Source: Solirubrobacterales bacterium
Lineage (GTDB): Bacteria; Actinomycetota; Thermoleophilia; Solirubrobacterales; 70-9
Assembly (NCBI GenBank): GCA_017882505.1
Contig: JADGPJ010000017.1
Location: 1 to 43,374, forward strand
Reading direction: 5' to 3'
Length of the DNA stretch: 43,374 nt
Shown in pieces: positions 26,031-28,666 of the stretch (position 1 is its first letter; each line of letters begins with the position of its first letter). Both the position numbers and the translations under genes were made by a program. Below the pieces are notes generated by a model. It worked only from the letters and a program-made list of their open reading frames with translations. It searched no databases and was not told the origin of the DNA.

Positions 26031-26954
26031 ATGGAGGCCAGAGAGGCATCCGGGACGCAGTCCAGGACCGAGCGAGCCGATTTCCAGGAGACGGCCGACC
26101 CGGCGCTGATGGAGGCCGCTGACCGCACGGCCGACGTCAAGCTGCTCAGCTACGCCGAGCTCTACCTGCTCTGGGAGCGCCAGCAGTGGCAGACCCAGGA
26201 GCTCGACTTCAGCCGCGACCGCGAGGACTGGCACCAGCGGATCAGCGAGGAGGAGCGCTTCCAGCGCATGTACGGGCTCTCCTCGTTCTTCATCGGCGAG
26301 CAGAAGGTGGCGGAGGAGCTGGGGCCGATCATGCGCGCCGCCCAGACCGAGGACCAGAAGATCTTCCTCTGCACGCAGATCGCCGACGAGGCCCGCCACG
26401 TCCGCTTCTTCGAGCGCTTCTACCGCGAGGTCGGCGTGCTCGAGGCGGACGGGCTGAGCGAGATGCTGGCGGAGACCTCGGAGCACCTCAACGACAACTT
26501 CGGTCGCCTCTTCGACGAGATGCTGAAGCAGCGGACCGACCGGCTCTCGGTCGAACCGGAGGACACCGAGGCGCTGGTCGAGGCGGTGACGCTCTACCAC
26601 ATGGTCATCGAGGGGATGCTGGCCCTCACCGGCCAGCACTTCATCATGGACTTCAACGAACGCGAAGGAACCCTGCCGGGCTTCGTCGCGGGGTTCCAGA
26701 AGGTCGCCCGCGACGAGCATCGCCACGTCGCCTTCGGTTCGGTCTTCCTGCGCGAGAAGGCGCGCGAGGACGACCGCTACAAGCAGGCGATCCAGCGCAC
26801 GCTCGAGGAGTCGCTGCCGGTTGCCGACGGCGTCCTCTCGCCGCCCTGGGCCGAGGAGGAGGAGGATTTCGAGCTGTTCGGCTACTCGCTGGAGGAAACC
26901 CGCAAGTTCGCCGGCACCTGCCTGATGCGGCGCCTCAAAGTCATCGGCCTCTAG
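26031..26954 (+). CDS. R2-like ligand-binding oxidase (ribonucleotide reductase R2 fold)
   Basis: A 307-residue ferritin-like protein. The six dinuclear metal ligands can be placed as E90, E120 and H123 (in DEARH), E194, E229 and H232 (in DEHRH). Val at E90+3 (V93) and Tyr at E194-5 (Y189) occupy the positions that form the Val-Tyr ether crosslink in R2lox proteins, which carry a Mn/Fe cofactor and bind a fatty acid. Together with DFSRDREDW near the N terminus and the absence of an nrdA neighbour, this favours R2lox over a true ribonucleotide reductase subunit. ATG 26031 follows GGGGAG by 5 nt. It converges with the sigma-factor gene. Confidence 0.82.
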   Translation: MEAREASGTQSRTERADFQETADPALMEAADRTADVKLLSYAELYLLWERQQWQTQELDFSRDREDWHQRISEEERFQRMYGLSSFFIGEQKVAEELGPIMRAAQTEDQKIFLCTQIADEARHVRFFERFYREVGVLEADGLSEMLAETSEHLNDNFGRLFDEMLKQRTDRLSVEPEDTEALVEAVTLYHMVIEGMLALTGQHFIMDFNEREGTLPGFVAGFQKVARDEHRHVAFGSVFLREKAREDDRYKQAIQRTLEESLPVADGVLSPPWAEEEEDFELFGYSLEETRKFAGTCLMRRLKVIGL

Positions 26955-26982: not shown

Positions 26983-28488
26983 CTACGGCGTGACGGGGGG
27001 TTCCGCCACCGGATCGCTGGGAGCGGCCGGCGGAGTCGGTTCCGCCGGCGGCGGAGTCGGCTCCGCCGGCGCGGCAGCGGCGGGCGGGGTCGACCCCGAA
27101 CCGCCGACGATCACGACCACGGTGCCGGTACCGCTGTGGGCCCCGGCGGCGGGCCCTTCGGAAGGAAGGGCGGCGGTTACGCCTTCGGACTCCGGACTGC
27201 CGATCCCGCCGGTGCCGGCGGTGGACTGGCCGGCGGCTTCTTCTTCGGCGTCGGGCGCCGTGGCGGGCGTTTCTTCGGCTACTTCCGCGGGCGGCGCGGG
27301 CTGCGTTTCGCCGGCTTCGATCGGGCGTGCCTCGACTACTTTGACATGGTCTTCGATCCCGGGCGCGATTGCGGGCGCCACGGCGACGGGCGCTGCGAGA
27401 CCCCCCGTGGATTCGAGATGACGGACCGTGCTGACCTTCGCCTGAGGCGTGACAGGGGTCGAGGTGTTCTGCTTCACCTCGACCGCGGCTCCGGCGGTCA
27501 GGACCGCGGCGGTGACCACTCCGGCGACGGCCTTGGTCCCGATCGCTCCGCCGATCGCGCCGATCCCACCGGCGGCGCCGCTGCCCCCGAGCGCGGCGCC
27601 GACGCTGCTGACGGCACCCGCTCCGGCCGCTCCGGCTCCCGCCGCACCGGCGCCCGCGTTGCTGGCTCCGGCGCCACCGAACCCGAGCTTGGAGAGGATG
27701 AGGCCTTTGAAGGCCAGCAGCGGGCCGATCGGGAACAGGGCCGCGAGGGCCTTCTCGTTGGAGCGGACCTGGGAGCGGAAGTTCGCGCACTCGTCGCACT
27801 CGCGGACGTGGCGGCGGACCGGGGCCGAGACCTTGCGCAGGCCCTCGGCCGCTTCGGAGAGCTCGACGTGGACCTCGCCGCAGGTCAGCAGGCGCGCCTG
27901 GCTCGCCTCGGCGAGGGAGATCCGGGCGCGGACCAGCAGCGACTTGACCGACGGCACCGTGGTCTCCATCGCGGCGGCGATTTCCTCGTAGGAGAGGGCG
28001 TCCATCTCACGCAAGAGCAGCGCCGAGCGCTGGGTCTCGGGAAGCTTGTTGACGTCGCTGAGGATCTGGCGGAACTCCTCGCGGTTGTGGACCCGCTCGG
28101 CGGTGGAGGAGGCCTCGACGGCGGGCACCATGTCCATCGATTCCTGCGCGTCGGCGGTCGGTTTGCGCAGGTGGTTGAGGCAGCGGTTGCGGGCGATCCG
28201 GTAGAGCCAGGGACGGAGGTTGATCTCGCGCTCGTCGGCGAGCATCGCCTTGTAGGCGTTGACGAAGACCTCCTGCAGCACGTCCTCGGCGTCCTCGGTC
28301 GAGCCGAGCATCTGCCGGCAGAATCCGAGCAGGCGACCCTGGTAGCGATCGACGATCGCCTCGAAGGCACCGGGGTTGCCCGCGCGCGCCATCGCGATCA
28401 GCTTCTCGTCGCCCTGGAGCTTGAGCAGGGGAGAGCGGCGGGCCAACAGCCCGCGGCGACTGGCGTGCGTGAGTGCGGATGCCTCCAA
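26983..28488 (-). CDS. ECF sigma factor fused to a zinc-binding anti-sigma domain and membrane anchor
   Basis: A 501-residue protein. Residues about 30-110 are sigma region 2 (AFEAIVDRYQGRLLGFCRQM, then DAEDVLQEVFVNAY). About 140-195 are region 4 with the helix-turn-helix (ALSYEEIAAAMETTVPSVKSL). C203, H207, H227, C231 and C234 form a zinc-binding anti-sigma-like motif (the last three as H-x3-C-x2-C). A Gly/Ala-rich linker leads to one transmembrane segment (about 318-338), followed by about 160 residues rich in Pro, Ala, Glu and Thr, presumably outside the membrane. Sigma and anti-sigma are thus one polypeptide. The TTG at 28488 follows GGAGGAG by 6 nt. Confidence 0.86.
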   Translation of the reverse strand: MEASALTHASRRGLLARRSPLLKLQGDEKLIAMARAGNPGAFEAIVDRYQGRLLGFCRQMLGSTEDAEDVLQEVFVNAYKAMLADEREINLRPWLYRIARNRCLNHLRKPTADAQESMDMVPAVEASSTAERVHNREEFRQILSDVNKLPETQRSALLLREMDALSYEEIAAAMETTVPSVKSLLVRARISLAEASQARLLTCGEVHVELSEAAEGLRKVSAPVRRHVRECDECANFRSQVRSNEKALAALFPIGPLLAFKGLILSKLGFGGAGASNAGAGAAGAGAAGAGAVSSVGAALGGSGAAGGIGAIGGAIGTKAVAGVVTAAVLTAGAAVEVKQNTSTPVTPQAKVSTVRHLESTGGLAAPVAVAPAIAPGIEDHVKVVEARPIEAGETQPAPPAEVAEETPATAPDAEEEAAGQSTAGTGGIGSPESEGVTAALPSEGPAAGAHSGTGTVVVIVGGSGSTPPAAAAPAEPTPPPAEPTPPAAPSDPVAEPPVTP

Positions 28489-28580
28489 GCTCTCCTCCAG
28501 GGAAGGCGTCGTTTCCTTTACTCAAGGACACCGTAACAGCGGCGCAGTTGCGGCCGGCAAAGATTTATTGCGGCTTGAAG

Positions 28581-28666
28581 TGCCCGGGGCGGGACTCGAA
28601 CCCGCAAGCCCCCGAAGGGACAGCGCCTTTTAAGGGCGCCGCTTTTGCCAGTTTCGCCACCCGGGC
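28581..28666 (-). tRNA. tRNA-Leu (anticodon TAA)
   Basis: Read on the minus strand, acceptor arms GCCCGGG and CCCGGGC pair over 7 bp with discriminator A. The anticodon stem GCGCC/GGCGC encloses loop CTTAAAA, giving anticodon TAA. A long variable arm (class II) and the T arm GCGGG-TTCGAGT-CCCGC are present. CCA is not encoded. Confidence 0.96.

What the first reader, a model, noticed from the sequence alone, without database searches (positions are those of the whole stretch)
26983..28488. One-polypeptide sigma factor, anti-sigma zinc domain and membrane anchor
ECF sigma regions 2 and 4 are followed by an H-x3-C-x2-C zinc motif with extra Cys and His, a membrane helix and a 160-residue Pro/Ala/Glu-rich external tail. 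The sigma factor seems permanently tied to its inhibitor and to the membrane, so release would need proteolysis or a conformational signal from outside. No separate anti-sigma gene is adjacent.
Basis: partly seen in the sequence, partly recalled or inferred. Interest (0 to 1): 0.65.

Follow-up and report, generated by a model that had tools for sequence, protein, structure and literature searches.

The report
Membrane-tethered sigma factor fused to inhibitor
A single bacterial protein joins a gene-switching sigma factor, its zinc-binding inhibitor, a membrane anchor and an external tail; the layout is already known from Streptomyces, but this branch is nearly universal in one order of soil bacteria, appears to switch on its own gene, and probably also controls a newly found small RNA.

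Summary
ORF 26983-28488 (-) encodes 501 aa: ECF sigma regions 2 and 4, a class-I-type zinc anti-sigma domain (C203, H227, C231, C234), an uncharged Gly/Ala linker, one Ala/Val-rich membrane segment and a 162-residue Pro/Ala/Glu tail. The four zinc ligands are invariant in 56 related fused proteins. The hydrophobic segment is conserved but only marginally hydrophobic. No anti-sigma gene is adjacent.

The layout is not new: ECF48, ECF52 and ECF53 proteins are described this way, and the ECF52-type protein I found in Streptomyces canus has the same order of parts plus a carbohydrate-binding module that is absent here. What is new is the clade: an ortholog found in almost every Solirubrobacterales genome searched, next to tRNA-Leu(UAA) in all 25 loci checked, and not found outside the order. 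A conserved ECF-type promoter (GCAACT-N16-GTC/T) precedes the gene, which implies autoregulation. The same promoter precedes a conserved, undescribed small RNA of about 100 nt and a DUF1385 gene.

Most likely mechanism: a self-inhibited, membrane-held sigma factor released by proteolysis. The anatomy and the promoter are shown by sequence; release, signal and zinc binding are inferred. Verdict: a new variant of a known kind.

The parts
26983..28488 (-). Gene for the fused ECF sigma / anti-sigma / membrane protein, 501 aa, TTG start at 28486-28488, stop at 26983-26985
   Evidence: N-terminus MEASAL conserved in orthologs
28527..28551 (-). ECF-type promoter GCAACT-N16-GTC (GCAACTGCGCCGCTGTTACGGTGTC), probable autoregulatory promoter, 38 nt upstream of the start codon
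   Evidence: motif upstream of 37 of 50 orthologs at >=6/7 in the -35, 0.7 expected from shuffles
28492..28498 (-). Ribosome-binding site GGAGGAG
   Evidence: read directly from sequence
28159..28410 (-). Sigma region 2 (residues 27-110)
   Evidence: Pfam PF04542; AlphaFold2 helices with pLDDT above 90
27904..28086 (-). Sigma region 4 (residues 135-195)
   Evidence: Pfam PF08281
27685..27903 (-). Anti-sigma domain (residues 196-268): helices 203-214, 222-230, 232-251, 254-268, continuous with the last helix of sigma 4
   Evidence: class I definition in PMC7406223
27787..27882 (-). Zinc ligands C203, H227, C231, C234 (C-x23-H-x3-C-x2-C)
   Evidence: invariant in 21 orthologs and in 56 fused homologs
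27535..27684 (-). Gly/Ala-rich linker without charged residues (residues 269-318; 40% G, 34% A)
   Evidence: same kind of linker in the Streptomyces ECF52-type protein
27472..27534 (-). Putative single membrane helix (residues 319-339) after invariant K319
   Evidence: marginal hydrophobicity
26986..27471 (-). Pro/Ala/Glu-rich tail (residues 340-501), predicted outside the membrane, no known domain
28580..28666 (-). tRNA-Leu(UAA), conserved neighbour upstream
   Evidence: present upstream in 25 of 25 ortholog loci

Best explanation
It is a one-protein envelope-signalling system. The N-terminal ECF sigma factor is held inactive by its own C-terminal zinc anti-sigma domain and held at the membrane by a single helix, with a disordered Pro-rich tail outside. 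A signal at the cell surface leads to cleavage of the tail and then of the membrane helix (site-1 then site-2 protease). The Gly/Ala linker and anti-sigma domain are then trimmed or opened, and the freed sigma factor directs RNA polymerase to GCAACT-N16-GT(C/T) promoters, including its own and that of a small RNA. Shown by sequence: the domains, invariant zinc ligands, conserved anchor position, order-wide conservation, and the shared promoter. Inferred: zinc binding, inhibition, membrane insertion, proteolysis, the signal, and that this sigma factor (not a paralog) reads the shared promoter.
For: Sigma regions 2 and 4 at Pfam significance. C203/H227/C231/C234 invariant in 56 fused homologs at 47% mean column identity. 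AlphaFold2 (pLDDT 85.8) predicts four helices after sigma 4, with H-x3-C-x2-C spanning helices 2 and 3, as in class I anti-sigma domains (PMC7406223). No separate anti-sigma gene nearby. An ECF-type AAC-N17-GTC/GTT promoter precedes 37 of 50 orthologs against 0.7 expected, and 7 of 8 close paralogs have the same -35 with a different -10, as expected if each sigma reads its own promoter. Site-2 protease (M50) genes are present in the genome. Precedents: IutY, a sigma/anti-sigma hybrid, is released by Prc and RseP (PMC5411451); proteolysis is the expected route for ECF48/52/53 (PMC8999054); deleting the C-terminal part of SCO4117 leaves an active sigma (PMC5826349).
Against: The membrane segment is marginally hydrophobic. 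The model's pTM is 0.48, so packing of the anti-sigma domain against sigma 2 is unresolved. After membrane cleavage the anti-sigma domain would still be covalently attached, so release needs a further step that no data show. M50 proteases are nearly universal (found in all 14 control genomes), so their presence is weak evidence. A relative in the same genome (L035) has the anchor but no zinc domain.
Confidence: 0.6

Rival explanations
1. Cytoplasmic redox or zinc switch: oxidation of C203/C231/C234 or loss of zinc opens the anti-sigma domain and frees sigma 2 and 4 while the protein stays anchored; the tail is only a wall anchor or spacer.
For: The ligand set Cys + His-x3-Cys-x2-Cys is the one of redox-sensing ZAS proteins of the RsrA type (general knowledge). 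All three cysteines are invariant. The tail is variable and has no domain. Conformational change is documented for soluble ZAS anti-sigmas (PMC8999054).
Against: About half of membrane-bound class I anti-sigmas carry the motif, and it can be purely structural (RsiW; PMC7406223). A conserved external tail and anchor would be superfluous for a cytosolic redox sensor.
Confidence: 0.2
2. Membrane-tethered sigma that works in place without cleavage: the anchored protein recruits RNA polymerase at the membrane after a conformational change passed through the helix, as ToxR/CadC-type regulators do for activation.
For: Related proteins keep the anchor without a zinc domain (L035; Patulibacter L066), so the tether itself may be the conserved functional part.
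Against: No sigma factor is known to initiate transcription while anchored, to my knowledge. The only tested fused sigma/anti-sigma protein with an anchor, IutY, needs cleavage (PMC5411451).
Confidence: 0.1
3. The hydrophobic segment is not inserted: residues 269-339 are a Gly/Ala/Val low-complexity linker and the protein is a soluble, self-inhibited sigma factor with an intracellular disordered tail.
For: Kyte-Doolittle 1.4-1.9; unweighted biological-scale sums +3.3 to +5 kcal/mol; only about 17 uncharged residues between K319 and E337. The whole stretch 269-336 is Gly/Ala-rich.
Against: Position, length and flanking Lys/Glu are conserved across the order. More distant fused proteins have clearly hydrophobic segments in the same place (L181 KD 2.29, L182 2.15), as does the Streptomyces ECF52-type protein.
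Confidence: 0.1

Closest known systems
ECF52 (SCO4117 of Streptomyces coelicolor; ECF52-type protein of Streptomyces canus found here, L242)
   Same: Same order of parts: sigma 2, sigma 4, zinc anti-sigma domain, Gly/Ala linker, one membrane helix, Pro-rich tail; proteolytic release is the proposed mechanism
   Different: No C-terminal NPCBM carbohydrate-binding domain here (present in L242, E 4.5e-29); only 24% identity; different, order-specific promoter and clade
ECF48 and ECF53 (fused zinc domain and membrane helices in Actinobacteria)
   Same: C-terminal fusion of zinc domain and membrane helix with a long extension (PMC8999054)
   Different: Group sequences and models were not available, so no direct comparison was made; some ECF53 proteins carry glycosyl hydrolase domains (PMC10766802), absent here
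IutY of Pseudomonas putida (ECF243)
   Same: Sigma factor and its regulator in one membrane protein, released by Prc and RseP (PMC5411451)
   Different: IutY has a periplasmic FecR-like regulatory domain and an outer-membrane receptor partner; no cytoplasmic zinc domain is described in the passages read
Class I (zinc) anti-sigma factors such as RsiW and ChrR
   Same: Four-helix domain with H-x3-C-x2-C; weak profile match to RsiW (E 0.35); Pfam zf-HC2 hits in 14 of 22 members
   Different: Those are separate proteins encoded next to the sigma gene; here the domain continues directly from the last helix of sigma 4

Membership tests
ECF sigma factor (sigma-70 group IV) | Regions 2 and 4 only, short linker, no region 3 | tested here: met
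   Pfam r2 and r4_2; NCBIfam TIGR02937 sigma70-ECF above its cut-off (85.6 vs 42.9)
ECF sigma factor (sigma-70 group IV) | AAC-type -35 and GTC/GTT- or CGT-type -10 promoter, autoregulated | tested here: met
   Motif upstream of 37/50 orthologs vs 0.7 expected; that this sigma reads it is inferred
Class I zinc anti-sigma domain (ASDI/ZAS) | H-x3-C-x2-C spanning helices 2 and 3 of a four-helix domain | tested here: met
   AlphaFold2 helices 203-214, 222-230, 232-251, 254-268; invariant ligands
Class I zinc anti-sigma domain (ASDI/ZAS) | Significant match to a family model | tested here: inconclusive
   zf-HC2 does not hit the window protein, best relative E 8e-4, 14/22 members at E<=1; RsiW E 0.35
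Class I zinc anti-sigma domain (ASDI/ZAS) | Binds and inhibits the sigma factor | not testable with these tools
   Needs biochemistry; model pTM 0.48 leaves domain packing open
ECF52 | Zinc domain, membrane helix and Pro-rich extension fused to the sigma factor | tested here: met
   feature list from PMC5826349
ECF52 | Carbohydrate-binding domain at the C-terminus | tested here: not met
   No domain in the tail at E<=1; control L242 gives NPCBM E 4.5e-29
ECF52 | Falls in the ECF52 sequence group | tested here: inconclusive
   24% identity to the S. canus protein; ECF group models not available
ECF48 / ECF53 | Sequence group membership | not tested
   No sequences or models of these groups were at hand; NAR 2021 classification paper not held

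The most novel reading that the evidence does not exclude
An order-wide, one-protein sigma pathway of Solirubrobacterales in which the Gly/Ala linker acts as a stop signal for a cytoplasmic ATP-dependent protease: the protease degrades the membrane stub from the C-terminus and halts, sparing the folded sigma factor, so that covalent fusion and proteolytic activation are compatible. The freed sigma factor drives a very small regulon: itself, a conserved small RNA and a DUF1385 protein.
Probability: 0.15. Interest if true: 0.7.

Novelty: new variant of a known kind. Interest (0 to 1): 0.42.

Why it matters
Fused sigma/anti-sigma/anchor proteins pose a clear open question: how can an inhibitor that is part of the same chain be removed without destroying the sigma factor? 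This clade offers a good test case. It occurs once in almost every genome of an order, its promoter is readable from sequence, and that promoter gives a ready reporter and a short target list. If the small RNA is under its control, the deep-branching Thermoleophilia, a poorly studied class, gain a first envelope-response circuit that can be tested.

Tried and rejected
Artefact or frameshift fusion of two genes: rejected, because the fusion is intact in more than 40 complete orthologs. Coding on the opposite strand (overlapping ORFs of 466 and 180 aa): taken as high-GC shadow frames, since the minus-strand protein is the one conserved in orthologs. The promoter motif as a sigma-70 site or a repressor operator: unlikely, since the -35/-10 spacing varies by one or two bases between genera and close paralogs keep the -35 but change the -10. 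Known RNA family for the small RNA: no Rfam match at E<=1 apart from tRNAs and clearly spurious microRNA hits. First AlphaFold2 job with 21 close orthologs gave a poor model (pLDDT 60); the second, with paralogs, was good per domain. Literature searches for Thermoleophilia ECFs found nothing specific. A conserved motif in the tail was only weakly supported.

Full report
WHAT IS THERE. The gene lies on the minus strand at 26983-28488, with a TTG start at 28486-28488 preceded by GGAGGAG, and encodes 501 aa. Pfam finds sigma-70 region 2 (46-109) and region 4 (146-190), and NCBIfam's sigma70-ECF model scores above its cut-off. After region 4 come an anti-sigma-like segment (196-268), a Gly/Ala stretch with no charged residue (269-318), an Ala/Val-rich segment between K319 and K339, and a tail of 162 residues rich in Ala, Pro and Glu without aromatic residues or Cys. 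The neighbours are a ribonucleotide-reductase-small-chain-like gene, a TPP enzyme gene, Ppx/GppA and tRNA-Leu; none is an anti-sigma gene.

CONSERVATION. The organism is a member of the Solirubrobacterales (Thermoleophilia, Actinomycetota), judged from the named relatives. Of 61 genomes (own plus 60 relatives), 56 hold a match at E<1e-90, and one more holds a fragment at a contig end. In a class-wide sample, 76 same-order genomes match at E<=1e-124, while the best match outside the order is only E 5.7e-60 (203 bits). In all 25 ortholog loci examined, a tRNA-Leu(UAA) gene lies next to the start of the gene, though not always on the same strand. The ortholog is therefore an inherited core gene of the order. 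Paralogs with the same layout occur in the order and elsewhere in the class.

ZINC DOMAIN. C203, H227, C231 and C234 are invariant in 21 orthologs and in 56 fused homologs including paralogs, where mean column identity is 47%. AlphaFold2 on a 56-sequence alignment gives mean pLDDT 85.8 and helices at 203-214, 222-230, 232-251 and 254-268, so H-x3-C-x2-C spans helices 2 and 3 as in class I anti-sigma domains (PMC7406223). Sequence matches are weak: zf-HC2 in 14 of 22 members, best E 8e-4; RsiW at E 0.35. pTM is 0.48, so how the domain packs on the sigma factor is unresolved. The best fold matches are ECF sigma factors, several of them solved in complex with anti-sigma factors (SigW-RsiW, AlgU-MucA, sigmaE-RseA).

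MEMBRANE SEGMENT. The segment is conserved in place, but the hydrophobicity is borderline (1.89 here, mostly 1.4-1.9 in orthologs, above 2 in several distant paralogs). I treat membrane insertion as likely but not shown.

PROMOTER. Upstream sequences of the orthologs share GCAACT-N16-GT(C/T), usually extended to TACSGTGTY. In 61 genomes the exact pattern gives about 30 matches, most of them upstream of this gene, against 2 for the pattern read backwards. Requiring at least 6 of 7 in the -35, the motif occurs upstream of 37 of 50 orthologs against 0.7 expected from dinucleotide shuffles, and upstream of 7 of 8 close paralogs, whose -10 differs (GTTAGAGT-like). AAC -35 boxes and positive autoregulation are typical of ECF sigma factors (PMC8103513). 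Autoregulation is therefore well supported, though not proven.

OTHER SITES. The own genome has three exact matches. One is the gene itself. The second precedes an intergenic transcript of about 100 nt with an intrinsic terminator. It is conserved in 16 of 37 genomes, has the promoter in 16 of 17 loci, has no Rfam match, and shows five pairs with compensatory changes. The third precedes a DUF1385 gene with a structured leader, and the promoter is present in all 13 loci where it was clearly aligned: twelve of the same genus and one of another genus of the family. Whether this sigma factor or a paralog reads these sites is inferred from the similarity of the -10.

COMPARISON. Fused zinc domain plus membrane helix is described for ECF48, ECF52 and ECF53 (PMC8999054). 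In the Streptomyces canus genome (the genome of locus L085) I found the ECF52-type protein (L242): sigma 2-4, zinc motif, Gly/Ala linker, membrane helix, Pro-rich tail, NPCBM. It is 24% identical over the sigma and anti-sigma parts. The present protein works like an ECF52 protein but fails one listed ECF52 feature, the carbohydrate-binding domain, so I do not file it as ECF52.

MECHANISM. IutY shows that a sigma factor fused to its regulator can be freed by a periplasmic protease and RseP (PMC5411451), and truncated SCO4117 retains activity (PMC5826349). By analogy, release by two-step proteolysis is the leading model, and M50 proteases are present. One difficulty is specific to this layout: the cytoplasmic anti-sigma domain stays attached after membrane cleavage. 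Either it is degraded by a protease that stops before the sigma factor, for which the Gly/Ala linker is a candidate determinant, or it opens by a conformational or redox change. Which of these applies is the question to test.

Noticed in passing
L204-L219 and L150 (own genome G000:C11:9253-9443, minus strand): A conserved, undescribed small RNA of about 100 nt (GGACCGACGRGCCAG...CTGGYGGYACGTCC hairpin plus terminator) with an ECF-type promoter in 16 of 17 loci; no Rfam match.
   Followed up: partly
L124:1501-2536 (own genome G000:C47:6500 onward); L220-L232: A DUF1385 gene with a GC-rich, structured leader of about 180 nt preceded by the same promoter in all 13 aligned loci, twelve of them of the same genus.
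   Followed up: partly
L035 (G000:C44:100647-101162, minus) and L066 (Patulibacter): ECF sigma proteins with the Gly/Ala linker, a hydrophobic segment and a disordered tail but no zinc anti-sigma motif: the tether without the inhibitor.
   Followed up: no
window residues 456-461 of the protein (about 27106-27123): Short hydrophobic patch in the external tail: TVVVxV in the genus, TT[AV]LP-like in other families (T[TVIA]LP in 9 of 41 tails, 1.6 expected); possibly a protease or docking site.
   Followed up: partly
L165-L172 upstream regions: Paralogous fused sigma factors share the GCAACTT -35 but have a GTTAGAGT/GTTACAGT -10, which suggests paralog-specific promoters.
   Followed up: partly
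window 26031-26954 (+): Ribonucleotide-reductase-small-chain-like protein (Pfam E 1.8e-18) with a weak AurF match, convergent with the sigma gene.
   Followed up: no
L012, L015, L019, L021, L028 and other MAG contigs: Many assemblies break inside the Gly/Ala linker or the tail of this gene, so truncated copies in databases are likely assembly ends and not biological truncations.
   Followed up: no
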